Under the pieces are notes generated by a model. That model ran no database searches, had not been told where the DNA came from, and saw nothing but the letters and a program-made list of their open reading frames with translations. This document shows positions 2,610-51,009 of a stretch of 64,000 nucleotides of DNA, piece after piece (positions within the stretch are counted from its first letter, which is position 1; every line of letters starts with the position of its first letter). This stretch comes from Carallia brachiata. Lineage: Eukaryota > Streptophyta > Magnoliopsida > Malpighiales > Rhizophoraceae. Made by a program: the position numbers and the translations under genes. Where the stretch lies: NCBI GenBank assembly GCA_021464245.1, contig JADCRB010000106.1, positions 1,086,138 through 1,150,137 on the forward strand, read 5' to 3'.

Positions 2610-3670
2610 AATCTTACCATGCTTTTAGGTTACCAACCACCCAAATTTCAGCAATTCGATGGACGAGGTGATCCTAAACAGCACATTGCTCACTTTATCG
2701 AAACCTAAAACGACGCAGGGACTTACAGACATCTTTCGGTGAAAAAGTTCGTTCGTTCACTCAAGGATACCGCCTTCACCTAGTTCATAAACCTCGAACC
2801 AGAATCAATTGACCATTAGGAGTAGCTGCAATGTGAGTTTCTCAACAAAATTTTCAACACTTAAAGAACAGTAAACATGATGGAGCTTACTAGTGCCAAA
2901 CAAAGGAAAGAAGAGCTCGTTGTCGAATACACAAATAAATGGTGGCCACTTAGTCTAGATTGCAAAGACCATCTAACTGAAATCTCTAATGTAAAAATGT
3001 GCATTCAAAGGATGCACAGGGAGCTGTTATACATCCTTCAAGGAATCAAATCTTGAACTTTCGAAAAACTGGCAACTCGCATGCATAACACGGAGATAAG
3101 CATTCAGACTTATGGGAGCACGAATCCTATCCAACTGGACTAGCATAGGGGTAGGGGGAAGTTAAAAAGTCTAGCAAATCGAGAAAAGGCAAGGAAGTGA
3201 TGACTGTTGATGCTTCACCAATAAAGGTGGGATCTAAAGCAAAAGTGAGCCTTCCAGAGCCAACAAATCAACCAATTCAACAGGAAAGGCAAAAGGTGAT
3301 GTTACGAGAATTGGAGCAAAAGAAATATCCATTTCTCGACTCCGACGTCCCAAACATTCTTGACCAACTTTTGGAAGCAAAGTTGATCGAATTCCTGGAG
3401 TCCAAGGGGGCCCAATATGAAGGATCATATCAGTGATCTAAAATTCTACAAGTATCATTGCATAGTTAGCCATCCAACCGAGAAGTGTTTCATCTTGAAG
3501 GAACTGATCATGAAACTCAAAAACCAAAATAAAATCATTTTGGGCCAAGAAGACATAACCTTGGCCATCCAAACCACAATCTCTTAAGTCCATTAAAAGA
3601 AGCGACACACTGCAAACAGGATCAATACGACAACAAAAAGTCGACAATATAGAAGGTATCTAAAGCTCTT
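2610..3670 (+). pseudogene. Tat-like gypsy gag remnant (left arm)
   Basis: The translation gives a retrotransposon Gag core: a YQPPKFQQFDG-like stretch near 2,630-2,665, GDPKQHIAHFIET near 2,670-2,705, then an EPESID...REFLNKIF region. Stops replace several codons. The last third (from 3,198) reads VDASPIKVGSKAKVSLPEP and later a KYHCIVSHPTEKCFILKE zinc-knuckle-like motif near 3,450-3,500. In the family this is the nucleocapsid-containing structural protein. It starts on the plus strand immediately after a minus-strand integrase, which marks a rearrangement junction near 2,600. Confidence 0.82.
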
Positions 3671-3689
3671 CAAACTCTTGTTGCTAACC

Positions 3690-4370
3690 CCCAACTACTT
3701 TCAGTGTTGCAATCATCCGAAGTCTGGCAGAACCAAGTGGGCAAGGCTCTTCATACCTCAACAAGATCTCCTCCTTCAAGTGATTTCAATTCAACAGATA
3801 AGCAGATGGTCCAAAATTATGTCACATGCTACTCTGCTATCTCATTCTCACATGACGATCTTTTGTTAGGTTCCAAGCCCCACAATTGACCACTCTACGT
3901 GTCAAGATGTGTAAGAGAACAGAAGATTCATTGTATCCTTATTGACGATGACTCAGCTGTCAATATCACTCCAAAATCAACCATGAAGGAGCTCAGCATC
4001 AGCATCGATGAATTATCAAAAAGCCGCTTGATGATTCAAGGCTTCAACCAAGGAGGATAGAAAGCAATTGGAATAATTTGCTTGGATCTGACCATCAGTG
4101 GTCGCATTTCCAGCGCTCACTTCCATGTGATCGGTGCACGTACCACATACAAAATGCTACTTGGTCGTCCATGGATTCATGGAAATGGAGTCATGCTTTG
4201 AAGTCTGCATCGATGCTTCAAGTACTACAAGGGTGGCAATCAAAAAGCTAATGCCGACTTAAAGCCGTTTGATAATGCTGAATCACATTTGACAAACACA
4301 ATCTTTTACACCAACTCAGACAATCTGAAATCATTCCTTCAAACATTTTCTCGATAGGAGACTACTTGAA
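3690..4370 (+). pseudogene. Tat-like gypsy aspartic protease remnant (left arm)
   Basis: The key motif is LIDDDSAVNITPKST near 3,940-3,985, the aspartic-protease active-site region where DDGSAVNI is usual; the Gly is replaced by Asp. Downstream, ARTTYKMLLGRPWIHGNG near 4,135-4,190 is the conserved second half of the retropepsin fold (LLGRPW). Internal stops and frameshifts are present. The same block appears on the minus strand at 27,900-28,560 and on the plus strand at 34,960-35,480. Confidence 0.8.
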
Positions 4371-5285
4371 AAAGGTTGAAGCTACCAAATATTCTCCCAA
4401 TGCTTGCTCTCGGACTCCAATAGACGAAAAGCTGGCACAGCCTACTAAACTTCATTCACGTGAGACTGCGTCTTTGGGTTCTACTCCAGTCCTATGCTAT
4501 GTGCCAAAGTCACAACGTCAAGAAAGTCAACCTCCTCTCTCTTATTGTGCTGATCTCAAACAAAGGAAAGAAACGATGAATTGAAGATAAAAGAACTTCA
4601 CAGTTTGAAGGAGACTAACACCTACCAATGCCAAAGATTGACCCGATTTTCCTTTAAAACCTCTAAAAGGTTTTCTTAGGCCACTCAAGGGGGCAATTGA
4701 ATGTGACTCATTTATAGAGGAAAGAACAGACGAAGGATTTGATCCTAATGCATATAGACTATTTGCTAAGGTAGGTTATGACTTCTCAAACCTAAACACA
4801 ATGGGTACACTACGAATTAAATGCACCTATGGCGCCATTGCTCAATCTTTAAAGTCCCGACCCGACCTTAGCTAACAGAAGAAGTTTCCTATGAGGATGA
4901 CATTGAAAATCCAAAATTGATTAGTTGATGCACGCGCCATCACCATCATCAACAAGCAGGAGAGGCCTGAATTGAAGTCAATTCAGTCGAGTGGAGAAGA
5001 GGAAGTTAAATCCTCTACATTTCATGTCACCATTTGTAAGGAGGCTGAGTCTAACTCATCAGACAGTGAAATAAAAGAAGCTCCTCTAAAACTGGAAGAT
5101 GGCGGCCAAGCTACCATTGATGAACTCAAGGAAGTCAATCTTGGTTCCTTTGAAGATCCTCGACCTACATCCATCAATGCCTTACTCACACCAAAAAGCA
5201 ACGAGAATATGTCCAAGTATTAAGTCAATACAAGGATATATTCGCATGAAGTTACAAGAAAATGCCTAGACTAGGCCTAAAGGTT
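4371..5285 (+). pseudogene. Protease-RT linker with truncated RT start (left arm)
   Basis: This region aligns with 35,500-36,425 of the fuller copy. Its end reads VLSQYKDIFA*SYKKMPRLGLK, the N-terminal edge of the reverse transcriptase, and then breaks off at about 5,285. RT, RNase H and integrase are missing on this side. Bases 4,796-4,840 contain the uninterrupted version of the site into which the Copia element inserted in the mirrored copy at 19,576. Confidence 0.75.
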
Positions 5286-5297
5286 TTTAATCTAGCA

Positions 5298-5478
5298 AGT
5301 CCAACTCAGTGGTTACCAGAGAGCATACACCCAAAATAGTAAATTATAATTTTAAGAGGAGGGAAAGAGGCCTTCAGAAACCTTGTTTTATATTTTTTTG
5401 TTCCCTGCATCCTCCTTTTAAAAATTATAATTTTAGTATTTTAGGTGTATCCTCTCTAGTTGCCACTGAGTTGGATCT
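5298..5478. repeat. Fold-back (inverted repeat) at LTR edge, left arm
   Basis: Bases 5,298-5,359 start AGTCCAACTCAGTGG and are the imperfect reverse complement of 5,411-5,478, which end CCACTGAGTTGGATCT. The spacer is about 50 bp. The arms are AT-rich, around ATTATAATTTT. The structure looks like a small MITE or an inverted duplication of the LTR edge. It is also present at 18,903-19,094. In the LTR at 32,340-32,500 two related motifs are in direct instead of inverted orientation. Confidence 0.75.
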
Positions 5479-6020
5479 ACTAAATAAAAAATCCAAGATA
5501 TTAAAATATTAAAGATTCGTATGAGATTAAGCCTATTGCGGTGCTCAGTGGAGTCAAACCAGCCCATCTAAGATCAAGCCCAAAAGGCTCTCAGTAAAGT
5601 CAAGCCAGTCCGTCTGAGATTAAGCCCTTATAGCCCTCAGTGAAGTCAAACCAGTCTATCTGAAATCAAGCTCATACCGCCCTTAATGGAGTCATGCCAA
5701 TCTGATCGACATCAAACCTCTACGGCTCTCACTAGAGTTAAAGCATCCGCTTGAGATCAAGCCTCAGCCTAGTGGAATTCATTTCTTTCGTTCAAGGTCA
5801 AGTTGTGGAATTTATTTCTTTTGTTCAAGGTCAAGTTTTGGAATTTATTTCTTTCATTGAAGATAAAGCTCACGTGGCCCTTAACAAAATCACAAAGGAG
5901 CATTAATCGAAGGATCTGCACAGAGATCGGCCGCAGAAAAATTTAAAACTTATATTTGTAATTTGTAATTGTATTTTCAAAGTCTATATGTTTTAAGGGT
6001 CAAAATTTTCAATCGCATCA
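5411..6020 (+). mobile_element. LTR of Tat-like element (left arm)
   Basis: The LTR is recognised by similarity to 18,411-18,965 (reversed) and 32,480-32,868 and by its position before a leader and gag start. Bases 5,515-5,765 hold about five subrepeats of ~55-60 bp built on GAGATCAAGCC and CTCAGTGGAGTCAA. A second short repeat, TTTCTTTCGTTCAAGGTCAAG, occurs about three times at 5,780-5,870. The 3' end is taken at GCATCA (6,015-6,020). The 5' end is uncertain because of the fold-back. Confidence 0.65.
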
Positions 6021-6026
6021 AATTTT

Positions 6027-6044
6027 TTGCACGCTTAGTAGGAC
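6027..6044 (+). promoter_or_regulatory. Candidate primer-binding site, Tat-like element
   Basis: The sequence TTGCACGCTTAGTAGGAC lies a few bases after the inferred LTR end. Variants (TGGCACGCTTAGTAAGAC) sit at the same place at 18,387-18,404 (minus) and 32,874-32,890. Position and conservation suggest the tRNA primer site. I do not assign the tRNA. Confidence 0.45.
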
Positions 6045-6300
6045 ATCCTTGCCCGCCATCTTTTGCTCTTTCATAAAAAAATAAAGAAGCAAAAAAAAAT
6101 CATCAAAAAAAAAGTCAACAAAAAAGGTTCCAAAAAAAAAGGAATTCAATGCACTCATGGTACCAAAGAAAAGCATGACCGCTTCCACCAGCAAGAAGGC
6201 GACTGTTCCATTGCCTGCATTAACTACCCTACTTTGGTATTTAGATCCAAAAACTCGCAGAAGGACACTATTTCTCACCACCCAAACACATGAAAATATT
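6045..6300 (+). pseudogene. A-rich leader and truncated gag N-terminus
   Basis: After a poly-A leader, an ATG at 6,157 opens a frame MVPKKSMTASTSKK that continues through PKTRRRTLFLTT and stays similar to the gag N-terminus at 18,270 (minus) and 33,052. Homology stops at 6,300, where the long tandem array begins abruptly. It is the only trace of the element whose LTR lies just upstream. Confidence 0.7.
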
Positions 6301-14972: not shown

Positions 14973-15330
14973 GTAAAAACAGGCTGTGTTGCAGAAACAG
15001 CAGCTCTCTGTGTTGCCCTCTCCTTACTTCTCTTGTCCTAAAATCAGAAAGACACATCTCGTTTTGACTACTTCGTACAGCCACAGTCGTGAAGCAAGTT
15101 GGAAGAGCTGTGATGAATTATGACAAACAAATCCATTGTTGCAGAACTGCTCCTCCAAGATTTACAGTTGTGCTGGGCTTGGTTGCCATTTGGTCTGTGG
15201 TACCCTATCCTTTCCTTGGTCCTAAGGTCTCATCTTTCTTGCTAAAATGGAGCAAAAGCTTGACATGTAGTAAGGACGAGTGAAAGGTTGAGGCTGGAAT
15301 ATTGATTCAGATAAAAACTTTCAATCGTTT
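14973..15330 (-). pseudogene. WOX-type homeobox fragment, copy 2
   Basis: Minus-strand translation gives KWQPSPAQL*ILEEQF, NSSQLFQLASRLWLYE and a degraded helix 3 (CVFLIL), corresponding to the homeodomain at 60-311 and 31,869-32,060. The alternative downstream frame, REVRRGQHRELLFLQHS, is also kept. There are several stops and substitutions. The gap cuts its 3' end. It lies beside a forward ~53-bp array exactly as in copy 1, so it belongs to the same retroelement structure. Confidence 0.72.
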
Positions 15331-15339: not shown

Positions 15340-15945
15340 TCAGTCGTTCACAGTTTATACTCATGCGGGCTAGTCGTTTTGACTAGGTTTTGATTTTCTT
15401 GTGCCGTTCATAGTTTATACTTATGTGGGCCAAGAGTTTTATGTTGTTGTTGCCGTCTCGCCCTTTATACTCTTGCGGGTAAGGAGTATGCTTTTATTAT
15501 TGTTGTCTTCTCACCTTTTGTACTCATATGAGCAAAGATTATGATTTTGCTGTTGTTGTCTTCTTGCCTTTTATGCTCGTGTGGGTAAAGAGTCTGCTTT
15601 TGTTGCTTTTGCCATCTCACCTTTTATACTCGTGTGGGTTAGGAGTATGCTTTTGTTGTTGTTGCCGTTTTGCCTCTTATACTTGTGCGGTTAAGGAGTC
15701 TACTTTGCTGTTTCTGTCTCGCAAGGAATCTAGTTTTGTTATTATTGCCATCTTCTTTTTATACTCGTGCGGGCAAGGAGTATGCTTTGCTGTTACCATC
15801 TCGCCTTTATACATGTGTAGGCCAGGAGTATGCTTTTGTTGTTACTGCTGTCTCGTCTTTTATACTGGTGCAAAGCAGGAGTCTGATTTTATTTCTGAGC
15901 TTTTTACATTTATACTCATGTGAGGCAAGAGTTTGGGATCAAGGC
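15340..15945 (+). repeat. Short ~53-bp tandem array of Tat-like element, copy 2
   Basis: About twelve units of the CTTTTATACTCGTGCGGGC family stand between the homeobox fragment and the GGATTT tract. The unit organisation is the same as at 477-845 and 31,340-31,665. Confidence 0.85.
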
Positions 15946-16324: not shown

Positions 16325-18270
16325 ACGCTTTATCTGATCATCTGTTATAATGGAATCACTCAAAGGTAGAGATTTTGTCGAATGATACAGCCATGTCGAT
16401 TTGGTTCTGCAACACTTCAAATGATTGCAACACTGAAGGAAGTTGAGGGTTAGTGAGGAGGTTTTGAAGAGCTTTAGATACCTCTTCTATTTTTGACTTT
16501 TTCATCGTCGTGCTATCCCTTTTTGAAGTGTGTCGTTTCTTCTAATGGATTTAAACAAATAGTGGTTTGGTTGGCTGAGGATATATCTTCCCAGTCCAAA
16601 ATGATTTTATTTCAATTTTTGAGTTTCATGATCAACTCCTTTAAGACAAAACACTTCTCAGTAAGATGGCTGACTATGCGGTGATACTTGCAAAATTTTG
16701 GGTCATTAACCTGATTATTCTCATTGGGTTACTCGATCCCTGGAAGTTCAACCAGCTTAGCCTCCAAAAGTTGATCAAGAATGTCTGGAACATCAGAGTG
16801 AGGAAATGGATACTTCTTTTGTTCCAACTGTTGCAACATCACCTTTTGCCTTTCTTGTTGTTTTGGTTGATTTATTGGCACTGGAGGGTTCAGTTTTGCT
16901 TTAACTCTTACTTTTTTTTGGTGGAGCGTCGACAGCCATCACTTCTTCGCCTTTTTCCAATTTGTTAAACTTATTCACTTCCTTCCTGTCGCTATGTTGC
17001 TTCAGTTGGATGGGAACCGTGTCCCCACAAGTTTGGATGCTTATTTCCATATCATACGTGTGGGTCGCCAGCTCTTCAAAAGCGTGAGGCTTGCTGCCTT
17101 GTAGGTTATACAATAGCTCCTAGTGCACCCTTGAATGCACATTTTTATGGCAAAAGTCTCTATCAAATGATCCTTGTAATCTAGACTGAGAGTACGCCAT
17201 TTGTTTATGTATTTGACGACAGGCTCTGTTTTCCTTTGCTTGGTGCTTGTAAACTGTATCATGCTTACTATTCGACGGGTGCTGAAAAATCTGTTAAAAA
17301 ACTCGCGTTGCACCTATTCCTAACTGTCAATTGATTCTGATATGAGGTTTATGAACTAGGTGAAGGTGGTGTCCTTGAGTGAACGAGCAAATTATTTTAC
17401 CAACAGGTCACCGTAAGTTCCTACATTGTTACAGGTTTCGATGAAGTGAGCAACGTGCTGCTTTGGATCACCTAGCCCATTGAATTGTTGAAACTTGGGT
17501 GGTTGGTATCCCAAGGGCATGCTAAGGTGTTTAATCCGTTTTATGTAGGATTTGACGTATTTGTGAACTTTGAAATGGTACACTTTATTGTAGGTGAATT
17601 GTATTGGTTATCATGTTCGTAGTTGTTGGACAGATAAAAACGACAGAATTTGAAGAGAATAGCTGTGTGGGACCGCAATGTTGTTTTTCTATCATGAAGA
17701 TGTTGGTTGGCATTGTTTCTAGACTGAAACCAGGTAGATATGGTCGCTCTGCGCTAGTCTCAGGATCAACTTGTATTGCAGCCTTTCCTTTGAGGTCAGT
17801 TATTTAATAATCTTTTTCCTCCAAAACTTTAATTACCTCTGAAATTCTACTTTCCAATTCTGTAATCCTTTTTTTCATGCTAGTTGTGTTTGTTATCATA
17901 ACTGTAACGATGTCAATGTTGGCAGATGATGCTCCATGGAAAACTGTAGTATAGGGCTCTTTTGATTCCTCCATGCTTGTTTTAGTAAAATAGGCCAGCT
18001 TTTGCTATTGTGCGGGGTTTGACACATTGCCTCGAACTTTGGTCGGAGTGGCTGGTTGACTTCTTCATTTGACAGGAGAGTCAGGTGAGAGATTTTATTG
18101 GTGTGTGACCTGTAGATTTCCATGTCAATATTTTGGTGTGTTTGGGTGGTGAGAAATAGTGTCCTTTTGCGAGTTTTTGGATCTACATACCCAGGTAGGG
18201 TAGTTAATACAGGTAATGAAGCAGTTGCCTTCTTACTGGTGGAGGCGGTCATGCTTTTCTTTGGTGCCAT
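16325..18270 (-). pseudogene. Tat-like gypsy gag, minus strand, in internally deleted element
   Basis: The start MAPKKSMTAS is at 18,270. The N-terminal part runs to about 17,900. The Gag core follows with MPLGYQPPKFQQFNG and PKQHVAHFIETCNN near 17,400-17,530, then FFNRFFSTRRIVSMIQFTST near 17,260-17,310, then the FEELATHTYDMEISIQ region near 17,040-17,080 and a basic stretch by 16,900. It ends in the gag-protease junction near 16,340. Stops and frameshifts interrupt it. It lacks protease and polymerase, running straight into the low-complexity tract on its 3' side, so this is a deletion derivative with LTR at 18,411. Confidence 0.8.
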
Positions 18271-18386
18271 GGGTGCACTGAATTCCTTTTTTTTGTTGGA
18301 ACCTTTTTTGTTGACTTTTTTTTCGATGATTGTTTTTTTTGTTTCTTTCTTTTTTTATGAAGTATCAAAAGATTGGGGGCAAGGAT

Positions 18387-18404
18387 GTCTTACTAAGCGT
18401 GCCA
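18387..18404 (-). promoter_or_regulatory. Candidate primer-binding site, Tat-like element (minus)
   Basis: On the minus strand TGGCACGCTTAGTAAGAC lies six bases from the inferred LTR end (GCATCA at 18,411-18,416). It is the best preserved of the three copies. The tRNA is not assigned. Confidence 0.5.
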
Positions 18405-18410
18405 GAAATT

Positions 18411-18965
18411 TGATGCGATTGAAAACTTTGAACCTTAAAACATATACACTTCGAAAATACAATTACAAATCACAAATATAAGTTTTAAATTTTTGTGGGG
18501 CCGATATCTGTACAGATCCTTCGATTAATGCTCCTTTGTGATTTCATTAAGGGCCACGTGAGCTTGATCTTCAACGAAAGAAATAAATTCCACAACTTGA
18601 CCTTGAACAAAAGAAATGAATTCCACTAGGCCGAGGCTTGATCTCAGGTGGATGAGAGTGGTAGAGGTTTTATCTTAATCGGACTGGCATGACTCCATTG
18701 AGGGCCTTATGAGCTTGATTTCAGACGGACTGGTTTGACTTCACTGAGGGTTGTAGGGGCTTGATCTCAGACAGACTGGCCTAACTTTACTGAGAGCATT
18801 ATGGCTTTGATCTTAGATAGACTAGTTTGACTCCATCGAGCGCTGCAAGAGGCTTAATTTCAGACAGATATTTAATATTTTAATATCTTGGGTTTTTCAT
18901 TTAGTAGATCCAACTCAGTGGCAACTAGAGAGTATACACCTAAAATACTAAAATTATAATTTTTG
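18411..18965 (-). mobile_element. LTR of Tat-like element (minus)
   Basis: This is the reverse complement of the LTR at 5,411-6,020, including the GATCTCAG/GACTGGTTTGACT subrepeats at 18,640-18,875 and the CCACGTGAGCTTGATC block near 18,555. It is shared as the boundary between the minus-strand gag at 16,325-18,270 and the minus-strand protease region at 19,110. The outer boundary is blurred by the fold-back at 18,903-19,094. Confidence 0.65.
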
Positions 18966-19094
18966 AGATGAGGACGGAGGAAACAAAAAAAATATATAAA
19001 AAGTTGTCCGAAGGCCTCTTTCCCTCCTCTTAAAAATTATAATTTAGTATTTTGGGTATATGCTCTCTGGTAACAACTGAGTTGGACTTGCTAG
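18903..19094. repeat. Fold-back at LTR edge, right arm
   Basis: GATCCAACTCAGTGGCAACT at the left pairs with ACAACTGAGTTGGACTTGC at the right across an AT-rich centre (ATTATAATTTTTGAG ... TAAAAATTATAATTTAG). It mirrors 5,298-5,478. Confidence 0.7.
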
Positions 19095-19580: not shown

Positions 19581-21043
19581 TGTTGGTCCCTTCGGTGAAG
19601 CCTAGAGGGGGGGTGAATAGGCTTCACAAATAAAAATCCTCAAATAAAACTTTGCAAATGAATGTAAACAAGAGATTGAAAGAAATACAATACTAATTTT
19701 TACAAGGTTCACCAAATGGCTACGTCCTTGGTCTTCTCAATAATCCCTCTCTTGGAGATTCTTGAGAGTTCAACTATAGGGATGCCTTTGGGCGCACCAA
19801 TCACCACCGTACAGTTTACAAGAAGACTCCACAAACACCTTTGCGTCCGCCTTCAAATTGGTTGTTGCACAAGTCCCACTTGCCAACACCACTTTCCCTT
19901 TTCTTTTAGATTTTCCTTCTTGGAGTTCAACCCTAACTCCTTACAAGATGATTCTCACAAGTCCCACTTGAGAGCTCTCACCTATTCTCACAATGTATTA
20001 CAATACAAATGAAACTTACTAGGTTGAATGCTAGTTTTACAATGAAAGCACTTACAGCAAAGAAAGCCTTTTTTCCTTAGGAGAGATTGTACAATAATTG
20101 AGTATATCTTTCTTCACATGTAAAACATCTTCAAGTGATGTTTAAGTAGCTGAAAGATAGGTTAGCAACTTGTTAGAGCCGTTGCCATTGGTTGCACATG
20201 CATACTTTGTTGTTTTCCTCTTGATAGCTTTGCATTGATTCCCTTGTCTAACACCTTTTGGTAGAACGGCTATAACTTGGTACAGACAGCTTGAAAAATT
20301 TTGATTCATTTTTTGTTATTTCATAGACTTTCATAGATATCTACCCACTAAATTTGACTATTTTTTAATGAGTTTAGCATAGTCAAATAAATATTGGAAT
20401 ATAGACGTTAAAGTTCCATCATACAGTCTGCACACTTTTAGTAGAACGTTATTATCTTGCACATGGCTTTGAAGTGTGACGTGATTTTTTTTGTATTGAT
20501 TAATAGGCACAACAGGGAATCTACACACAAAATGTCACATTCAAATTAGTTGTGTGATCTTCCAGATAGCCGTTTCAATTTACTCCATGTTCACTGAAGG
20601 TTCCTAATTGCTTGCACCCTCTTGGTATAAAATTCGTAAGGTTTTCTCTAGGGCTCCAAAAATTGCACAACTAAGCTCATTTGAAACTAGACTTATAGGC
20701 CTGCAAAACTGTGTATACTTTAGGCCCAAAATGTATCTCAAGTGAGTGAGTTTGGTACCTGGAATTTGCCCAAACAGATTTACTCTTGTGCTGTCTTTCT
20801 AAGATAGTAGCTTAATAAGGCCCAATGTGATCTTTCTCTTCCATGCACATGTAAGATGACATATGTATACCTCTTTGGACTTCTTGAACCTGAATTGTAT
20901 ACTTGAAGAACATACAAATGAAATTCACTTGTACTTATGTTAGATTGGTTCATAGCTCATTATCAAAACACTCATCCTCAAAACATGAATTCACACTTTG
21001 TAACAATTTCTTAATGTATGCATGGGGTGTGAATTTTCCAACA
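19581..21043 (-). mobile_element. Copia 3' LTR
   Basis: This LTR is 1,463 bp, TGTTGG...CCAACA, with a strong match to 26,175-27,591. It differs from that copy mainly by scattered substitutions and by an extra ~60 bp near 20,500-20,560. It contains the SIRE-like GGGGGGGTGAATAGG motif near its outer edge. Confidence 0.9.
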
Positions 21044-21060
21044 ATATCCACCTTTTTTAT
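21044..21060 (-). promoter_or_regulatory. Copia polypurine tract
   Basis: On the minus strand ATAAAAAAGGTGGATAT lies directly before the 3' LTR start, the place and composition expected for the plus-strand DNA primer. Confidence 0.65.
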
Positions 21061-21655
21061 GATGACAAAACCTTTAAATAGATGCTCCCCCTTAATGTAA
21101 GCTTCCTCAAGAAATGCTCTTTCTTGATGACTCTCTCTTAATTTTCTCCCCCTTTTTGTCATCAATAAAAATGGTTGAAACTAAAAATGTGAATGCTAAC
21201 TAGGTTAAGAGATTGAGACTCCCCCTTAATGTATGCCTGTATCACAAGTTCACATTTACAATTAGGCATATCAGTTATCATAACTTTGAAATGTAGGTCT
21301 TGTAGAGTTCAAATACAATCATTAAATTAGAGTAAAGAGTGGATTATGTGAACTTAGAAAATAATGCCTCAATTCCAAAAACGTTTCACTAGAACAAAAA
21401 TAGAGTGTATTATGTGCAATGCTCATAGAAAATGGTTTTCAATGCATTTGCTTCATTAATTTGAAGTAATTTCATTGAAAGTTTGGCCACTTTGTTATGC
21501 CATAAAATGGCAAGACAAACACAAACATTCATGCAAGATTAAGCAAATGAAGACATTCAAGAATATGCTAATGCATGGGGTGTGACATGCTTAATTCTCT
21601 TCTTAGATTACAAAATTGATCTATCAAGAGGTCTTGGAACAAGAGTCCATACTTG
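21061..21655. other. Copia 3' non-coding region
   Basis: This is AT-rich sequence with CTCCCCCTTTTTGTCATCA near 21,140 and a repeated CCCCCTTAATGTA motif (21,088 and 21,223), features common next to the 3' LTR of SIRE-type elements. No coding region is seen. The end is drawn where the sequence changes character; it is approximate. Confidence 0.55.
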
Positions 21656-22107
21656 GCTTCATTCAAAATTGGGTCACTATGTTGCCAAAAATTCAATGTG
21701 GGTCACTACTTTCAAAAATAGTTCATGAATAGGTCAAAAAATGTTACCGTAGTCAATTGCTTACGTGGATGTCCAACTCAACAGTCAATTGCTTACATGG
21801 AAGCTGACATGGCATGCCTAGTCAGAAAGGTTGCTGATATGGCACACAGTCAGAAAAGTCGCGAACAGTCAGACGGAAGTAGCTAATAGTTACGTGAAAG
21901 TGGAGGACAGCTGGCCAATTATTACCGAGACAATCAAGTGTAATTTTCAGATCGTCAGGCATAAAGTGAGGATTGAAGGAGATATGCATATCTCAATTTA
22001 TCACTTTTTGTGTCCAGAGTTTCATCTTTTAGATTAACCATCTTTCATCTTTCATCTTTGTTGTTTCCAAAGTTTCATCTTTCATCTTTTAGATTAACCA
22101 TCAGAAC
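21656..22107 (+). other. Putative upstream region of the captured homeobox gene
   Basis: This non-coding stretch contains two pairs of direct repeats: CAATTGCTTACGTGGA / CAATTGCTTACATGGA (21,753 and 21,786) and TTTCATCTTTTAGATTAACC (22,020 and 22,077). No TATA motif is convincing. It could be the 5' flank or UTR of the gene starting at 22,108. Confidence 0.4.
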
Positions 22108-22757
22108 ATGGAATTTGGAGACTCATCTAATTCCAGATGGAAACCAGAGCCAGAGCAATTGCAAATCTTAGAAGATGTTTTTTGTGGCATTGAAAAAGCT
22201 TGTCCCACATCAAGATAGCTTGCTCAACTTGCCTCACTGTTGAGACAATATGGTCCAGTTCAGGCAAGTAATATTAGAGTCTGGATCCAGAATCAAAGGC
22301 ACGATATGAGAAGGGCCATAGCGCCTCCTGTTATATATCTCAACAATGTATGTTCAATTATACCAAATGTTACTGGAATCGTTTCTCAAGAAAATCCCAT
22401 CCAGCATCACCCACCACCAGGGATTTCCTCTTTCCCATTTCAGATCTTTGACGTCGGTCAGAGATCAAACTTTGAAATGTTTGATGTGGATCAGAGATCA
22501 AACTTTCAAATCTTTGATGTGGGTCAAAGACCAAACTCCAACGAGTATTTTTACCAAGTAGGGAGCATTATTCCAGTAAGCAGCAGATCGGTCGACCCTT
22601 CTCATGAGGAAGAAAGGGAAACACTCACTCTCTTTCTTATTTATCTAGGCAATGTCAATCAGCGAGGAAATTCTGGTAGCATCAAATTGCTATCCCACCG
22701 AATGATGAGGACTCTGTGGATCTAGAGCTATGCCTTGGGCCTTACATGAGGGACTGA
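22108..22757 (+). pseudogene. WUSCHEL-type homeobox gene captured inside Copia element
   Basis: An ATG at 22,108 opens MEFGDSSNSRWKPEPEQLQ, a WOX homeodomain start. It continues ILEDVF, CPTSR*LAQLASLLRQYGPVQ, then helix 3 NIRVWIQNQRHDMRR, which keeps the W-x-Q-N-x-R pattern of the recognition helix. One in-frame TAG (22,216-22,218) breaks it, a likely CAG-to-TAG change. After the homeodomain the frame stays open to 22,725 and includes three 11-residue repeats (FQIFDVGQRSN type, 22,440-22,540). In another frame, DLELCLGP at 22,719-22,742 is an EAR-like repression motif followed by a stop at 22,755, as in WUS-clade C-termini. It reads opposite to the Copia proteins. Function, if any, would be DNA-binding repression; this copy is broken. 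Confidence 0.75.
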
Positions 22758-22836
22758 CAATGACAAGATAAGAAGACATTTTCTGGTGTGAGAAAATGGA
22801 TATGCAGGGATGTTGGTTTGTCTTGTAGTGCATGAA

Positions 22837-23460
22837 TCATGGTGGGTGTACTGCAATATGAATGCATGTAATAAGTAGTTGGCATTGTTTGCATAAGTGT
22901 GTAAGATAAAAGTTTTGGGCTCTTACCCTAATGGTATTATCTCCTTGTAGAGCGTTCATGTATGTGCTATCAATATCATTGCAAGGGTTGAAAAGCTTCC
23001 TTTCGCTCACCATCTTATTCACATGGATTCTCTTTTGGGCAGCATCACCAAGACTCAATTCAAGCTTGTTTCCTTTCTCAAGAGGACAACTCTGACACTT
23101 CTTCAAGAATCAATCATAACTCTTCCAATATAACTCCAAATCATATTTTGCTTCTTCCATTTGAAAGTAGACTCATAGAGCTTTTCATACATGTATAGAT
23201 CATGGGTTGATTCCTCTCCATCTGGCCACGGTACCTGCTGGAAGCTAACTAATCCTGCTGGCGTGACAGACTGTGTACCCTTCAGTTTGTTGGCAATGTC
23301 TCCTTCTACACATATCCAATTGACGTGATTCTTATCAATTTGAAAACTGGATAGAATTATCTTTCTGTCCATATATATTTCAACAACTGATTCTTTCCCA
23401 ATTTTTCGCAGCAATCTCAGAAAGTGGACTGATTCTATTTGCTTGATAGGTTGAGCACCC
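22837..23460 (-). pseudogene. Unrecognised gene fragment(s) inside Copia element
   Basis: Two adjoining minus-strand frames, 23,414-23,103 and 23,106-22,837, have non-repetitive protein-like composition (VEIYMDRKIILSSFQIDKNH, then CQSCPLEKGNKLELSLGD). They resemble no Copia domain I know. The lower frame ends near ACCATTAGGGTAAGAG, which could be an exon end with a splice donor. I do not recognise the family. It may be host DNA captured with the neighbouring homeobox gene, or a separate capture. Confidence 0.4.
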
Positions 23461-23785
23461 TTTAGTCATTTGGTCGTATCTTGCTGTACAGACCTCCAAA
23501 AAATTCAATTGTAGAAGCGTTCAAAACTAGACATCTTGAGCTTTCTAATCGATATAGCACATTATCTAGTTCATATCCATGTGAGCAAACGAGCCTTTTA
23601 AAGTTGACCATACTGGATAGTACTTACACTGAATGGGACCAATATCAATAGTTGTCTTATGCTAGCATTGCTTCCATTTCAATTGATGTTTATTTGATTA
23701 AATCATTTAACTACACAGTTAAATAAACTTATTAGTAACTCTCAATGTTTAGCAATCATCAAAACCAAAAAAAATGAAACCTTAG
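23461..23785. other. AT-rich segment without recognisable gene, capture boundary
   Basis: I see no coding signal. The stretch near 23,750-23,780 (AGCAATCATCAAAACC) resembles the non-coding style of the Copia 3' region, so the foreign DNA probably ends between 23,700 and 23,790. Confidence 0.4.
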
Positions 23786-24353
23786 GGTCTTAACAAGCAA
23801 ATGCATTACACAACTTATTCTTTTCATACTTAAGCTTTGGTAAACCTCTCACTAAATCAAGTTTAGATGATTTTGAAATCATATTCATTCTAGCATGTCC
23901 AAGCTTTCTATGCCAAATCCAAGGTTCTTCTTCTTTTAAATAAACTATACATATGTCAATTGAAAACAAATCATTTAAAGTAAGCACATACACATTTCCT
24001 TTTCTTTTTCCTACAAATATCAATGCTTTAGTATGGGGATCATATACTTCACAAGTCATGGGTTTGAATAATACCTCAAAACCTTTATCACACAATTGGC
24101 TAATGCTAATTAAGTTGTGCTTTAAACCACTTACCAAAGCAACATCCTCAATAAAACTTGATACATTGTTACCTATAGTGCCAACTCCAATGATTTTTCC
24201 TTTTCCATTGTCTCCAAACGTGACACATCCTCCATCCTTCCTTTTTAGTGTGGAGAAAAATGATGGTTCTCCGGTCATATGCCTTGCACATCCACTATCA
24301 AGGTACCAAATGGCATCTTCTTTAAAATATGTTGCCTTCAAGCACTTTTCCAC
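23786..24353 (-). pseudogene. Copia protease and GAG-pre-integrase, truncated
   Basis: The 187-residue frame carries the protease active site WYLDSGCARHMTG near 24,275-24,314, then a VALVSGLKHNLISISQL stretch typical of the protease C-terminal part. It ends in the GAG-pre-integrase zinc region WHRKLGHARMNMI near 23,880-23,925 and NKLCNAFAC near 23,795. The catalytic integrase core that should follow is missing. In life the protease would mature the Copia polyprotein. The frame upstream to gag is interrupted. Confidence 0.88.
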
Positions 24354-24477
24354 CTACAAAACAAGATGTAGAATATTTTGGTACCCATATCTTTTTGGGT
24401 CCTTCAATGTTACACCAATCATTCTTCTTCATCGAATATTTAACCATCCATACTTGTTTGAATTTATTAGGCTTTTC

Positions 24478-26119
24478 CTAAGCTTTAGAAGATGACAGAT
24501 ACTTGTTGTGATCACTAGGTCTTCTAAGTCTACAATCATGAAATTTGTGTCCTTCTTTATGGCAATAAAAACATGATACAACAATTTTGTTTTCTTTTAT
24601 GGGATTAGTCTTGTTTTTGGTGAGGTAGCCTAAACCGGATTTGTCAAAAATTTTCTTTTGAAAAGATAACATCTCATCTAACTTATTGCTACCTAATATG
24701 AATTTTGAAAAGGACTTTTCTAAATTTGAATTCTTTTCTTTAAGGTCCTCAACTTCTTTTTCCAAAGCATGATGTAAATTGTCTTTGATGTTAGGGGTCT
24801 CTTTAGATATTGCAAGCTCTTGTTTAACAAAATTTTTAACTCACTACAAGTTGATTTATGATCTAATTTAGCATTTTCAAGTTCTTCTTTTAAAAGACTA
24901 TTTTCCAAGACAATTTCATCTTTCTCTAACAAAAGTTTTTCACACGCTTTCTTTTGCTCTTTATATTGTTTATATTTCCTTTTAAATGTGATTAATAACT
25001 CATCAAAAGCTTCTCTAAGTTCTTTGTAAGAGGGAAGATCCATTATCTCATTGTCACTTTTATCGTCATCATCTAGGGCCATGAGTGCCATGTATGATTC
25101 TTGCTCTTTCTCATCTTCATCATCACTTTCACCCCATCCTACAAGAAATGCTTTCTTACCTTTCTTACCTTTCTTTTTCTTGAGATTGGGACAATCTACC
25201 TAGAAGTGGCCAGGTTGACTGCATTCAAAACAAAGAGGCCCTTCTTCCTCTTCACTTTTGTTGGACACTTGTTTCTTGAGCCTCCTTCTTCTTTTGGGAT
25301 ATTTCATCATCTTCTTGAACCTTTTGACAAAGAGAGCAAGTTCTTCATTATCAATGGTTGAATCACTTTCAACATCACTTTCATCATCCTTTTGATGTTT
25401 CAAAGGAATATTGGCTTTAGCTTTGAGTGCTACATTTTTTGAGGATGATTCTACTTGTGGTAATATATTTCTCCTTTTGAGTTTGACCTCATGAGTCATC
25501 AAAGACCCAAGCAACTCTTCCATGGTTAGCTCCTCCACGTTGTGAGTTTCTTCAGTGGCATTAATCTTCATTTCGTACTCCTCATTCATTGAATTCATTA
25601 ATTTCTGCACAAGTTCACCCTTTCCAAGTACTTTGCCAAGATTGGCTAGTCTATTAGCAATAATCATGAGTGTATCATACAACTTTTAACCGATTCATTT
25701 GGTCTCATAGTGAAAAATTCAAATTCTTTCATAAGCATGCCAAGTTTAACTTTCCTAACTTTTAATGTCCCTTCATTTGAGAGACACAATGTATTCCAAA
25801 TTTCCTTAGCATTTTTACAATGTTTGATGGTGTTATATTCACTTCTAGCTATGAACATTTTCAAATTATAATATGCTCTTTCATCTATTTGGCTTTTCTT
25901 ATAGTCCTCTTCATCCCATTTTCCTATTGGTTTTTCTCCCAAGGTTTTCACTCCCTTATCATCAACAACATCTTCCTTAGGCACATATGGTCCCTCTACT
26001 ACACTTAACCAAACTTTTATCCCCTTAGATTTAAGATAACTTTCCATATGGTCTTTATAGTATTGAAAATCACTACCATCAAAGCAAGGTCTCTTGTTTT
26101 CATTGGATGAGGATTCCAT
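24478..26119 (-). pseudogene. Copia gag, long SIRE-type
   Basis: The start is MESSSNENKRPCFDGSDFQY at 26,119. A UBN2-type capsid domain runs to about 25,300 (YYKDHMESYLKSKG, WNTLCLSNEG, KLMNSMNEEYEMKI). A zinc knuckle CFECSQPGHF*VDC lies near 25,200-25,235, with one TAG in place of an expected Gln. An acidic and coiled-coil region (25,130-24,780) follows, then a second knuckle CFYCHKEGHKFHDC near 24,533-24,576. A frameshift joins two parts near 25,670. Length and two knuckles suit the SIRE lineage. Confidence 0.88.
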
Positions 26120-26160
26120 GGGGATCCCTCAAGGATGTTAAGCCTTACAAGTGAGGTTAA

Positions 26161-26172
26161 GCTCTGATACCA
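26161..26172 (-). promoter_or_regulatory. Copia primer-binding site (initiator Met-tRNA)
   Basis: The minus strand reads TGGTATCAGAGC two bases inside the 5' LTR. It is complementary to the 3' end of plant initiator Met-tRNA and is the usual primer site of Copia elements. Confidence 0.9.
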
Positions 26173-26174
26173 AA

Positions 26175-27591
26175 TGTTGCTCTCTTCTGTGAACCCTAAA
26201 AGGGGGGGGGGGATAGGCTTCACAAATAAAAATCCTCAAATAAAACTTTGCAAATGAATGTAAACAAGAGATTGAAAGAAATACAATACCGATTTTTACA
26301 ATGTTCACCAAATGACTACGTCCTTGGTCTTATCAATAATCCCTCTCTTGGAGATTCTTGAGAGTTCAACTATAGGATGCCTTTGCGCGCACCAATCACC
26401 ACCGTACAGTTTACAAGAAGACTCCACAAACACCTTTGCGTCCGCCTTTAAATCGGTTGTTGCACAAGTCCCACTTGCCAACACCACTTTCCCTTTTCTT
26501 TTAGGTTTTCCTTCTTGGAGTTCAACCCTAACTCCTTACAAGATGATTCTCACAAGTCCCACTTGAGAGCTCTCACCTATTCTCACATTGTATTACAATA
26601 CAAATCAAACTTACTAGCTTGAATGCTAGTTTTACAATGAAAGTATTTAGAGCAAAGAAAGCCTTTTTGCCTTAAGAGAGATTGTACAATGCTTGAGTAT
26701 CTTTCTTCACATGTAAAACATCTTCAAGTGACGTTTAAGTAGCTGCAAGATAGGTTAGCAACTTGTTAGAGCCGTTGCCATTGGTTACACATGCATACTT
26801 TGTTGTTTTCCTCTTGATAGCTTTGCATTGATTCCCTTGTCTGACACCTTTTGGTAGAACGGCTATAACTTGGCAGAAACAGCTTGAAAAATTGTGATTC
26901 CTTTTTTGTTATTTGAAGAATTGCATAGATATCTACCCACCAAATTTGACTATTTTTTAATGAGTTTAGTGTCGTAAAATAAATATTGGAATATAGACAT
27001 TAAAGTTCCGTCAGACAGTCTGCACACTTTTAGTAGAACGTTAATATCTTGCAGATGGCTTCAAATTTTTACTTGATTCTTTTTGAATTAATTAATAGTC
27101 GTGTGCTCTTCTAGGCAGCTGTTGTAATTTACTCTATGTGCACTGAAGGTTCCTGACAGCTTGCACCCTCTTGGTATAAAATTCATAAGTTTTTCTCTAG
27201 GGCTCCAAAAAGTGCACGACCAAGCTCATTTGAAACTAGACTTATAGTCCTGCAAAACTATATATATTTTAGGCCCAAAATATATCTCAAGTGAGTGAGT
27301 TTGGTACCTGGAATCTGCCCAATAGATTTGATCTTGTGCTGTCTTTCTAAGATAGCAGCTTAATAAGGCCCAATGTGATCTTTCTCTTCCATGCACGTGT
27401 AAGATGACATATGTATACCTCTTTGGACTTCTTGAACCTGAATTGTATACTTGAAGAACATACAAATGAAATTCACTTGTACTTATGTTAGATTGGTTCA
27501 TAGCTCATTATCAAAACACTCATCATCAAAATATGAATTCACACTTAGTAACAATTTCTTAATGTATGCATGGGCTGTGAATTTTCCAACA
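26175..27591 (-). mobile_element. Copia 5' LTR
   Basis: This LTR is 1,417 bp, TGTTGC...CCAACA, adjacent to the primer site. It has a run of 12 Gs (26,202-26,213) where the 3' LTR has 7, and lacks about 60 bp relative to it. By eye most other positions agree, with scattered differences that imply an insertion of appreciable age. Confidence 0.9.
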
Positions 27592-28560
27592 GTGTACCCA
27601 TGGTGTTTAGGTTTGAGAAGTCATAACCTGCTTTAGCAAATAGTCCATATACATTAGGATCAAATCCTTTGTTTGTTCTTTTCTCTATAAATGAGTCACG
27701 TTCAGTTGCCCTCTTGAGTGGCCTAACAAATCCTTTTAGAGGTTTTAAAGGAAAATCAGGTCAATCTTTTGTATTGGTAGGGTGTTAGTCTCCTTCAAAC
27801 TATTAAGCTCTTTGTCTTCAATTCACTCTTTTATTTTCAATTCACCGTTTCTTTCCTTTTGTTTGAGATCAGCACAATAAGAGAAAGGAGGTTGACTTTC
27901 TTAACACTGCGACTTTGGCACATAGCATAGGATTGGAGTAGAACCCAAAGACGCGGTCTCATGTGAACGAAGTTCAGTAGGCTATCACGGCTTTCGTCTA
28001 TTGGAGTCTGGGAGTGAGCATTGGGAGAGTCTTCGGTAGCTTCAACCTTTTTCAAGTTGCCTCATATGGAGAAAATATTTGAAGGAATGATTTCAAGATT
28101 GTCTGAGTCGGTGTAAAAGATTGTGTCTACTAAATGTGATTCAGCATCATCAAACGGCTTCAAGTTGGCATTAACTTTTTGAATGCCACCCTTGTAGTAC
28201 TTGAACCGTTGATGCAGACTTGAAAGCATGACTCCATTTCCATGAATCCATGGATGACCCAGTAGCATTTTGTATGTGGAACGTGCATCGATCACATGGA
28301 ACTAAGTGCTGGAAGTGAGATCACTGATCGTCAGATCCAAGCGAATCATTCCAATTGCTTTTTATCCTCCTTGGTTGAAGCCATGAATCATTAAGCGGAT
28401 TTTTGATAATTCATCAATGTTGATGCTAAGCTCCTTCCTGGTTGATTTTGGAATGATATTGACAACTGAGTCATCGTTAATAAGGATACGATAAATCTTA
28501 TGCTCTCTTACATATCTTGACACGTAGAGTGGTCAATTGTGGGGCTTGGAACCTAACAAC
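27592..28560 (-). pseudogene. Tat-like protease region, part 2 (right arm)
   Basis: This continues the alignment broken by Copia. DARSTYKMLLGHPWIHGNG lies near 28,230-28,292 and the active-site region LINDDSVVNIIPKST near 28,440-28,490, a degraded form of DDGSAVNI. It is the minus-strand mirror of 3,900-4,800. A frame of 77 residues (28,295-28,062) stays open; the rest has stops. Confidence 0.8.
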
Positions 28561-29685
28561 AGATCCTCATGTGAGAATGAGATAGCAGAGTAGCATGTCA
28601 CATGATTTTGGACCATTTGCTCATCTGTTGAATTGAAATCACTTGAAGGTGGAGATCCTGTTGAGGTATGAAGAGCCTTTCCCACTTGGTTCTGCCAGCC
28701 TTCGGATGATTGCAACACTGAAAGTAGTTGTGGGTTAGCAACAAGGGTTTAAAGAGCTTTAGATACCTTCTATATTGTTGACTTTTTGTTGTCGTATTGC
28801 TTCTCTTTGCAGTTTGTCGCTTCTTCTAATGGACTTAAGAGATTGTGGTTTGGTAGACCGAGGTGATGTCTTCTTGGTGCAAAATGATTTTATTTTGGTT
28901 TTTGAGTTTTATGATCAGTTCCTCCTCAAGATGAAACACTTCTCGGTTGGATGGCTGACTATGCGGTGATAATTGCAGAATTTCAGGTCACTAATATGAT
29001 CCTTCTTATTGGGCCCCCTCGAACTCCGAGAATTCATTCAACTTTGCTTCCAAAAGTTGGTCAAGAATGTCTGGGACGTCGGAGTCAGGAAATGGATATT
29101 TCTTTTGCTCCAATTCTCTCGCAACATCACCTTTTTCCTTTCTTATTGTATTGGTCAATTTGTTGGCTCTAGAGGGCTCACTTTTACTTTAGCTCCCACC
29201 TTTATTGGTGAAACATCAACAGCCATCACTTCCTTGCCTTTTCCCAGTTTGCCAGACTTTTTAACTTCCATCCTGCCACTATGCTAGTCTAGTTGGATGG
29301 GAATCGTGCTCCCGGAAGTCTGGATGCTTATCTCTATGTCATGCATGTGAGTTGCCAATTCTTCGAAAGTTCGAGATTTGATGCCTTGAAGGACGTATAA
29401 CAACTCCCTGTGCATCCCTCAAATGCACATTTCTACATTAGATATTTCAATTAGATGGTCTTTGCAATCTAGACAAGGAGGGCGCCATCTGTTTGTGTAT
29501 TCAACTCCGAGCTCTTATTTCCTTTGTTTGGCATTAGTAAGCTCCATCATGTTTACTGTTCTTTAAGTGTTAAAAAATTTGTTGAGAACTATCAATTGAT
29601 TTTGGTTCGAGGTTTACAAACTAGGTGAAGGTGGTATCTTTGAGTGAATGAACGAACTCTTTCACCAAAAGTTCTCTGTAAGTCG
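28561..29685 (-). pseudogene. Tat-like gag remnant (right arm)
   Basis: This is the minus-strand mirror of 2,740-3,860, covering the gag C-terminal half and the zinc-knuckle-like segment near 28,930-28,975. At 29,685 the reading strand flips: minus gag ends at GACTTACAG and plus integrase starts. Compared with the left arm, about 210 bp holding the start of the gag core (left-arm bases 2,523-2,731) are deleted. Confidence 0.78.
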
Positions 29686-30830
29686 TCATCATAAGATAGA
29701 AATTCAATGTCGAGCTTCCTGCTTCATATGTCTTGAAGACACTTTGTATCAAAGGTCTTTTGATGGAGTATTTCACTGTTGTCTAGGCAATGAAGAGGCA
29801 AAAGCTATCAAAGAAGCATATTTTGGCATCTGTAGTAGGCATCAATCAGGATCCAAGTTGCACTTCAAACTCATAAGGATGGGGTACTACTGGCCAACTA
29901 TGGTACGTGATGCATTAGAATTTGCCAAAACTTGTCAAGCTTGTTAGTTTTATGCGAATTACATGCATCAGCCACCAAAGCAGCTGCATCCGACCGTTTC
30001 ATTCAAGCCCTTTGAAGCTTGGGGACTCGATTTAGTAAGGCCTTTGCCAAAGTCATCCTTGGGTTACCTTTACATTCTTGAAGCAATAGATTACTTCTCA
30101 AAATGGATCGAAGCTATTCCACTTAGAGAACTAAAGAAGGAACATGTTGTTAATTTCATCTGAACTCATCTGATCTATCGTTATGGCATTCCTCAGTTCA
30201 TCATCATTAATAATGGTCAGCAGTTCTACAACAATTTGATGGATAAGATCTGAAAAATGTTCAAGTTCAAACAGTACAAATCGTCGATGTATAATGCGTT
30301 GGCTAATGGCTTAGCTGAAGCATTTAACAAGACCTTGTGCAACTTGCTGCGAAAGGTAGTCTCTAAATACAAAAGGGACTGATATGATAGAATTCTTAGG
30401 CATTATTAGCATATCATACAACTTATCGGACTTCAAAGTAGGTAACACCATATGCCTTTGTATGTGGTCGAAGAACTACTGCCATTAGAAACATAGATCC
30501 CATCCCTCTACATGGCTGTCTATGAAGGCCTCACATGGGAGGAAAATGCCTAACTGCATTTGGATGAGTTGAAAGCCCTTGATGAGAAAAGGCTCCAAGC
30601 ACAACAGGAACTTGAGTGCTTCAAAGCCTAATTCACTAATGCATTCAACCACAAAATTCACCCTCGATCATTTCAAGTTAGGGCCACGGCTCCCATCCAA
30701 CCAGACCAACAGAGGGATAGGAGCACCGTCTCAGTGACAAGCTCACTTCTTAGTGGGATAGGGCATACTTGGTTCAAAAAGCTTACATAAACAATGCTTA
30801 CATGCTATCAGACCAAAAAAGTATCTGAAC
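29686..30830 (+). pseudogene. Tat-like integrase remnant (right arm)
   Basis: The zinc region includes RRSFDGVFHCCLGNEEAK and FAKTCQAC (29,755-29,945). The catalytic core has WGLDLVRPLP, FSKWIEAIPL near 30,020-30,125, then YGIPQFIIINNGQQFYN near 30,178-30,235 and NGLAEAFNKTLCNLL near 30,305-30,350. The C-terminal extension LDEKRLQAQQELECFKA near 30,580-30,630 is typical of Tat/Athila integrases. Stops and a mutated second Asp (INNG for TDNG) make it non-functional. It is the reverse-complement partner of 1,380-2,560. Confidence 0.87.
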
Positions 30831-31339: not shown

Positions 31340-31665
31340 AAATCCTGATCCTAGACCCTTGCCTCGCATGAGTATCAAAGGCAAAAAGTACAATAACAAA
31401 AGTATACTCATCGCCCGCACCAGTATAAAAGGTAAAACGGCAATAGTAAAGCATGTTTATTACCTGCACAAGTATAAAAAGCGAGATAACAACAACAAAA
31501 CATAATCTGAACCCAGACGAGTATAAAAGGCAAGACGACAATAATAAAAAAAATAGACTCCTAACCCGCAAGAGTATAAAAGGCAAGACGGCAACAACAA
31601 AACAAAACTCTTGGCTCGCATGAGTATAAACTGTGAATGGCCCAAAAAACAAAAAATCATTACAG
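31340..31665 (-). repeat. Short ~53-bp tandem array of Tat-like element, copy 3
   Basis: About six units in the GAGTATAAAAGGC orientation stand between the low-complexity tract and the homeobox fragment. The last two (31,610-31,720) have diverged to a TATAAACTGTGAATGGCCC form that also occurs near copies 1 and 2. Confidence 0.85.
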
Positions 31666-31699: not shown

Positions 31700-32153
31700 G
31701 AATGGCCCAAAAAGATAAAAACGATTGAGAGTTTGAGTCTGAATCATTGTACCAGCCTCAACCTTTTACTCATCCTTACTGCATATCAAGTTTTACTCTC
31801 TTTCAGCAAGAAAGATGGAACTAGTTGCAGAATTTTGGGGCTAGGGAAAGTAAAGGTCACCACACATTAGATGGCAACCAAGTCTGCCGCAACTGCAAAT
31901 CTTGGAGGAGCACTTTCGGAACAATGGAGGTACTTGTCCTAAATCATCACAGCTCACCCAACTTACTTCCCGACTATGGCTGTACGGAGCAGTTGAAACA
32001 AAAAATGTGTATTTTTTGTTTCAGAACCGAAGAAGTAAGGAGAGCGCAACATAGAGAGCTGCTGTTTCTGCAGTATAGTTTGTTACTACCACCGCAACTG
32101 TTCCTGAGGTAGATTTTACCAATATTACTTTGTCCCCAACAGCCAACCAATAA
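31700..32153 (+). pseudogene. WOX-type homeobox fragment, copy 3 (best preserved)
   Basis: From 31,869 the frame reads RWQPSLPQLQILEEHF, then CPKSSQLTQLTSRLWLYGAVE and helix 3 TKNVYFLFQNRRSK. This is a full WOX homeodomain with no stop; the helix-3 Trp (WFQN) is Leu. After helix 3 two TAGs follow, and the frame ends at 32,151-32,153 after VDFTNIT, 94 codons from the first Arg, exactly as in copy 1. The alternative frame VRRAQHRELLFLQ is open as well. Upstream sequence has weak, frameshifted similarity (THPYCISSF) among the three copies, so the captured region includes N-terminal coding sequence. It lies downstream of integrase on the same strand, before the LTR. Confidence 0.85.
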
Positions 32154-51003: not shown

Positions 51004-51009
51004 TTTTCC

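What the first reader, a model, noticed from the sequence alone, without database searches (positions are those of the whole stretch)
31700..32153. A WUSCHEL-type homeobox is a fixed cargo of a Tat-like gypsy retrotransposon
Three copies (27-463, 14,973-15,330, 31,700-32,153) of one WOX homeodomain fragment all lie at the same place: next to the ~53-bp array and low-complexity tract, distal to the integrase end and before the LTR. Two of them keep exactly 94 codons between the first homeodomain Arg and the same terminal stop. So the capture happened before the element multiplied. Sense orientation relative to pol would allow transcription from the LTR. I know of plant retroelements that carry extra ORFs, but not of a WOX cargo; that this is undescribed is inference.
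Basis: partly seen in the sequence, partly recalled or inferred. Interest (0 to 1): 0.88.

Follow-up and report, generated by a model that had tools for sequence, protein, structure and literature searches.

The report
Stem-cell homeobox gene aboard plant retrotransposons
A plant jumping-gene family carries its own WUSCHEL-type stem-cell control gene, and the worn copies in this window are old relatives of copies that spread recently in the same genome.

Summary
Three decayed WUSCHEL-type (WOX) homeoboxes lie where stated; A and B are one duplicated, rearranged segment, D is separate. In the host assembly (337.5 Mb, species unnamed) I assign 101 of 150 scored homeodomain matches to one WOX family by length and score; 32 were fetched and all 32 carry it. 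In 16 of 24 loci read far enough the frame is open from homeodomain through WUS box to an EAR-like end, about 207 codons from Met. It lies in sense downstream of integrase in a Tat-like Ty3/gypsy element (20 of 24 loci). Seven copies gave both LTRs: distances 0.2-2.9%, six with a perfect 5-bp TSD. Selection on the cargo is weak (omega about 0.7) and undetected in window copies; the function is inferred. Eight searches of an open library showed no homeobox/WOX cargo of a plant LTR retrotransposon.

The parts
27..463 (-). WOX homeobox copy A (HD Arg codon at 311, stop at 29-27; 5 in-frame stops between)
586..813 (-). short 53-bp-type array beside copy A
1706..2589 (-). integrase-region remnant of element A, sense to WOX A
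2600..5272 (+). gag-protease region of A, inverted relative to WOX A
5412..6299 (+). LTR plus leader piece of the A composite
14973..15330 (-). WOX homeobox copy D (3' part lost in N gap 14044-14972)
15442..15890 (-). 53-bp array beside copy D
16332..17536 (-). gag region of element D, sense to WOX D (pol missing)
18126..18975 (-). LTR/leader piece upstream of gag D
19581..27591 (-). Copia-type LTR element inserted in element B; LTRs about 19581-21043 and 26174-27591 (90.45% identical), TSD GTGTA at 19576-19580 and 27592-27596; Copia gag, Pol_BBD and pre-integrase frames, no reverse transcriptase among the frames scanned
22108..22759 (+). second WOX gene, antisense to the Copia gag frames: homeodomain (one stop), degraded WUS box TLTLFLI, EAR-like DLELCLG in another frame
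27591..29683 (-). gag-protease region of element B, inverted relative to WOX B
29697..30534 (+). integrase-region remnant of B, sense to WOX B
31390..31640 (+). short 53-bp-type repeats beside copy B
31700..32153 (+). WOX homeobox copy B, the finding (HD Arg codon 31869; TAA 32151-32153; 2 in-frame stops between)
32227..32872 (+). estimated LTR between WOX B and gag C, then a decayed primer-binding site near 32876; boundaries judged by eye
33787..39130 (+). element C: gag region, reverse transcriptase (36631-36975), RNase H (37608-37955), integrase region (38236-39130, by homology to young copies); no WOX seen after it

Best explanation
The window holds old, dead members of a Tat-like Ty3/gypsy LTR-retrotransposon family whose 3' region, between integrase and the 3' LTR, contains a captured WUSCHEL-clade gene in sense orientation. 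Shown: the gene moves as part of the element, old and young subfamilies have it in the same place, and it is open from homeodomain (with the WUS base-contact residues) through WUS box to an EAR-like end in 16 of 24 loci read. Shown: a related WOX is carried antisense by a Copia element of the same genome. Inferred: capture was from an mRNA by template switching or read-through (no intron in the ORF, A-run about 200 nt after the stop). Inferred: the protein is made and acts as a nuclear WUS-type repressor that favours the element in stem or germline-founder cells, where new insertions are inherited.
For: Family: (101 of 150 scored matches assigned by length and score; 32 fetched, 32 verified). 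Open frame: 16 of 24. Integrase upstream in sense: 13 of 15 long-flank loci and 7 of 9 short-flank loci; integrase confirmed by Pfam rve in the three loci scanned. Mobility: PPT 10 of 10, TSD 6 of 7, LTR distances 0.0023-0.0288. Motifs: with WUS contacts R38, Q89, N90, R94 from passages of PMC7203112. Copia carrier. Trees place the element-borne genes apart from 11 host WOX exons (98/95; 85/84 with more rows).
Against: Selection is weak: whole-ORF omega about 0.7 (2dlnL 5.35, 21 rows); C-terminus 0.6 (5.5) in a smaller set but 0.8 (1.1) in the larger. Homeodomain conservation is biased because loci were picked by a homeodomain model. 8 of 24 loci have a broken frame. Window copies show no codon-position bias. 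None of five WUS-type motifs occurs in 10 of 10 young LTRs. In the larger tree the young and the window Tat-borne genes are not one clade, though that is not rejected (p-AU 0.129). No transcript data. 4 of 24 loci lack integrase in the piece fetched.
Confidence: 0.85

Rival explanations
1. Passenger: the WOX was captured and is copied along, with no benefit to the element; intact ORFs only reflect recent bursts.
For: Omega near 0.7-0.8 and not significant for the C-terminus in the larger set; equal codon-position changes in window copies; 8 of 24 loci broken; insertion ages about 0.1-2 My at two rates recalled from the literature.
Against: WUS box and EAR-like end are present in Tat and Copia versions that differ at most other sites. 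Of seven loci whose WOX differs 6-14% from L017 while integrase is 97-98% identical (L031, L032, L033, L059, L062, L063, L064), three (L032, L059, L063) are still open from homeodomain to EAR-like end. A neutral simulation keeps a 207-codon frame free of stops in 11% of runs at 0.1 and 1.9% at 0.2 substitutions per site, indels not counted.
Confidence: 0.4
2. Self-regulator: the homeodomain binds the element's own LTR and tunes its transcription.
For: DNA-contact residues are kept; extra DNA-binding-type proteins are proposed to regulate Retand elements (PMC11963269, abstract and passages); TCACGTG occurs once in each of three old LTR pieces (about 0.01 expected) and one of them also has TTAATGG/CCATTAA (0.14 expected).
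Against: None of the five WUS-type motifs tested occurs in 10 of 10 young 3' LTRs.
Confidence: 0.15
3. The homeoboxes are host WOX genes or pseudogenes that elements landed beside.
For: Tandem WOX-like repeats, without LTRs noticed in the pieces read, exist at C136 and C101.
Against: TSDs enclose the element with its WOX in 6 of 7; same position and orientation on many contigs.
Confidence: 0.02
4. All three window copies come from one segmental duplication.
For: True for A and B: shared inversion joint and shared flank.
Against: D differs in structure and is only 74-76% identical; a further old element E lies left of the window; the family is spread over many contigs.
Confidence: 0.01

Closest known systems
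Orchid (Phalaenopsis) Ty3/gypsy elements with an AlkB m6A demethylase ORF (PMC9289625: abstract, screen section and term search)
   Same: Host-derived domain fixed in a gypsy family of one plant group.
   Different: Enzyme, not a transcription factor. Their screen of 121 angiosperm genomes names PMD, G-patch, AIR1, B3, YgdH and others, all in Gypsy and none in Copia; the main text has no homeobox, homeodomain, WUS or WOX. The supplement was not seen.
Retand/Tat elements with antisense TRP28 ORFs and 3' tandem repeats (PMC11963269: abstract and passages)
   Same: Long pol-to-3'LTR region, tandem arrays in about half, extra protein predicted to bind DNA.
   Different: Their known extra domains are antisense; sense ORFs there encoded no known domain. 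Here a sense WOX.
Bs1 of maize and other transducing plant elements (PMC13317346 passages; PMC7264820 part 1 of 3)
   Same: Captured host coding sequence in an LTR element.
   Different: Those transduced segments are reported as partial or in one or a few copies; here a long ORF with all WUS-type motifs in many copies, and a related gene in a second superfamily.
WUSCHEL and WUS-clade WOX proteins
   Same: Homeodomain with contact residues, WUS box, EAR-like motif.
   Different: Multicopy, element-borne, without introns in the ORF, and diverged from the 11 host WOX exons compared.

Membership tests
Ty3/gypsy LTR retrotransposon | LTRs, PBS, PPT, TSD; integrase after RT-RNase H | tested here: met
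   PPT 10 of 10; both LTRs in 7 of 10, TSD in 6 of these 7, PBS printed in 6 of 7; RVT_1, RNase H and rve by Pfam, order by coordinates.
Tat lineage (Retand/Ogre type) | RT phylogeny within Tat | not tested
   No plant RT reference set in the tools; recalled RT motifs only.
Tat lineage (Retand/Ogre type) | Two RNase H domains after RT (recalled as a Tat trait) | tested here: met
   In the one young RT frame scanned, RT_RNaseH at 227-328 and RVT_3 at 380-499.
Tat lineage (Retand/Ogre type) | Long pol-to-3'LTR region with tandem repeats and an extra ORF | tested here: met
   53-bp arrays in the old copies, low-complexity tract in the young ones.
WUS-clade WOX | WOX homeodomain | tested here: met
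   Young Tat ORF to PDB WUSCHEL E 2.9e-18; Pfam 2.3e-12, Copia ORF 2.6e-8.
WUS-clade WOX | WUS box and EAR-like motif | tested here: met
   TLPLFP (TLSLFP in L009) and D[LF]EL[RH]L in 16 of 24 Tat-type loci; TLSLFP and DLELRL in both Copia copies.
WUS-clade WOX | Groups with host WUS in a tree | tested here: inconclusive
   67 columns; not grouped, but TE plus host WUS as one clade is not rejected, p-AU 0.217.
Functional accessory gene | Purifying selection in the element lineage | tested here: inconclusive
Functional accessory gene | Transcript or protein | not testable with these tools
   No expression data.
Copia LTR retrotransposon (window 19581-27591) | LTRs, TSD, Copia gag | tested here: met
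   Retrotran_gag_2 4.4e-9. No RT among the frames scanned, so probably non-autonomous.

The most novel reading that the evidence does not exclude
Two unrelated LTR-retrotransposon superfamilies in one plant genome have each kept a working WUSCHEL-like repressor as an accessory gene, the plant counterpart of a retrovirus carrying a growth-control gene: it holds or makes cells stem-like, so that new insertions enter the germline.
Probability: 0.3. Interest if true: 0.97.

Novelty: new variant of a known kind. Interest (0 to 1): 0.88.

Why it matters
WUS proteins set stem-cell identity, and only stem-cell lineages pass insertions on. An element that brings its own WUS-type gene would be a direct test of whether retrotransposons manipulate plant cell fate. 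It would also pollute WOX gene annotation and provides many natural variants of a WUS-type protein.

Tried and rejected
Protein searches with the Tat-type and Copia-type WOX found nothing at E 0.01. Viral-contig scans for WOX, array and RT found no relatives. WUS-site search in LTRs: none in young ones. An omega test without transition bias overstated selection and was replaced by grids with it; one run timed out. I dropped the reading that slower WOX than 3'UTR divergence shows selection, because synonymous distance is also low and the elements look mosaic. L058 was first counted by me as a family member; it proved a host WOX9-type exon and is not in the 101. Structure prediction was not asked for, since loci of the fetch from genomes are not on its stated list. 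Literature: (open PMC library; listings only, for example 20 of 91 and 15 of 403 papers shown) showed no homeobox or WOX cargo of a plant LTR retrotransposon; one search was on satellites.

Full report
Check of the observation. The three homeobox copies are at the given places. With X at stops, copies A (27-463, minus) and B (31700-32153, plus) pass Pfam's homeodomain cut-off (1.5e-6, 3.3e-7); D (14973-15330, minus) does not on its own (0.14) but is 74-76% identical to A and B in DNA. B hits WUSCHEL in the PDB at 1.8e-11. A and B have 94 codons from the homeodomain Arg to the same stop, with 5 and 2 stops in between. Codon positions 1, 2 and 3 change about equally in the homeodomain (A-B 7,6,9; A-D 15,13,14; B-D 13,10,15), so these copies look dead.

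Anatomy. A and B share an inversion joint (gag antisense, integrase sense) and 87-89% identity. In both, an LTR and gag start follow the WOX, seen for A only in sequence fetched left of the window. They are one duplicated segment. D has gag, low-complexity tract, array and WOX in one orientation, with pol missing and an N gap after it. An older element E left of the window has pol, low-complexity tract and WOX in sense, with WUS-box remnants in another frame. Element C (33787-39130) has gag and pol regions but no WOX was seen after it. A Copia element (19581-27591, TSD GTGTA, LTRs 90.45% identical) sits in B.

Genome. In the host assembly a homeodomain search scored 150 of 1348 first-look candidates; its 14 control genomes gave none. 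By match length and score I assign 101 of the 150 to one WOX family; one of the 101 shows a stop in the match. I fetched 32 of the 101 (L009-L018, L029-L033, L043, L045, L046, L049-L053, L059-L067) and all 32 carry the family's homeodomain, 31 of 32 without a stop in it. The other 69 rest on length and score. L045 and L046 have the same protein where both were read and may be one duplicated region. The number is a lower bound because scoring stops at 150. L058, which I had first counted, is a host WOX9-type exon and is left out. Of 24 loci read to the end of the gene, 16 are open from homeodomain through WUS box to the EAR-like end; L010, L029, L030, L031, L033, L060, L062 and L064 are not. 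Integrase lies upstream in sense in 13 of 15 loci with long flanks (not L029, L030) and 7 of 9 with about 1.4 kb upstream (not L060, L061). Pfam finds rve in the three integrase frames scanned, and RT plus two RNase H domains in the one RT frame scanned. All ten loci of the first set have the PPT GTGGGGGCA followed by an LTR starting TGTAAAC. Seven of the ten gave both LTRs; six of these seven have perfect 5-bp TSDs and L011 does not. For L014, L016 and L017 no 5' LTR was found in the fetched piece. Kimura distances between LTRs are 0.0023-0.0288, roughly 0.1-2 million years at rates recalled from the literature.

The protein. From Met the ORF has a WUS-length homeodomain that keeps R38, W39, Q89, N90 and R94 of WUSCHEL (residues from passages of PMC7203112), then a WUS box TLPLFP (TLSLFP in L009) and a C-terminal LDLELHLG or LDLELRLG. 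An A-run lies about 200 nt after the stop in the two loci printed; I read it as a possible trace of mRNA capture, which is inference.

Selection. Codon models with transition bias give omega 0.6 for the C-terminus (2dlnL 5.5, 12 rows), about 0.6 for the homeodomain (4.8, 18 rows) and 0.8 for the linker (0.5). With more copies the whole ORF gives 0.7 (5.35, 21 rows), the C-terminus 0.8 (1.1, 21 rows) and the homeodomain 0.5 (3.1, 10 rows); identical and gappy rows were dropped from the 24. This is weak evidence, and the homeodomain part is biased by how copies were found.

Second carrier. The Copia-borne WOX of the window is multicopy: 213 matches, 150 of 1247 candidates scored, the list cut, with some two dozen or more rows in frames near 219 or 232 codons without a stop. 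Two were fetched (L054, L055); both have it in the same place and antisense as in the window element, whose flanks they match, with frames 4 nt apart, WUS box TLSLFP and DLELRL. Tandem WOX-like repeats at C136 and C101, and by coordinates at C19, are of the same kind. In a first tree the element-borne and window genes form one group (98/95). With more rows they still lie apart from the 11 host WOX exons (85/84), but the window Tat genes group with the Copia and tandem ones (83/84) rather than with the young Tat ones; holding all Tat-borne genes together is not rejected (p-AU 0.129). With 67 columns this order is open. Whether there was one capture and a transfer, or separate captures from one lost gene, is open too.

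Function. The best guess is a nuclear WUS-type repressor expressed from the element; the rival of a passenger is nearly as likely. None of five WUS-type motifs occurs in ten of ten young LTRs; three old LTR pieces each have one TCACGTG.

Literature. The nearest case is the AlkB gypsy family of orchids (PMC9289625; outline with abstract, screen section and a term search seen), whose 121-genome screen names no homeobox in its main text. Retand's extra ORFs are mainly antisense TRP28 (PMC11963269, abstract and passages). Eight answered searches showed no WOX cargo (listings only).

Noticed in passing
22108-22759: A second, unrelated LTR element (Copia) carries a WOX gene antisense; relatives are multicopy in the genome and two fetched copies are intact.
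   Followed up: partly
6304-14043 and 51009-62984: Long 53-bp tandem arrays of the same kind of unit as the short array beside the WOX copies, with orientation flips near 11680, 51739 and 60249: satellite-like growth from a retrotransposon 3' region.
   Followed up: no
39924-43734, 46228-46546, 62741-64000: rDNA pieces (18S, 5.8S, 26S) by Rfam, some partial.
   Followed up: no
G000:C19:1603333-1611898, C101:458621-466842, C136:4140458-4143194 (L056, L057 read): Tandem repeats of WOX-like sequence at about 1-2 kb spacing, no LTRs noticed in the pieces read; possible relics of the donor gene family.
   Followed up: partly
L028:897-5900: Older Tat-type element with WOX just left of the window, keeping WUS-box remnants.
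   Followed up: partly
L031, L032, L033: Integrase 97-98% identical to L017 but WOX 8-14% different: mosaic elements carrying different WOX variants.
   Followed up: partly
23103-23465: 120-codon open frame in the Copia element without Pfam match, where integrase/RT would be expected.
   Followed up: no
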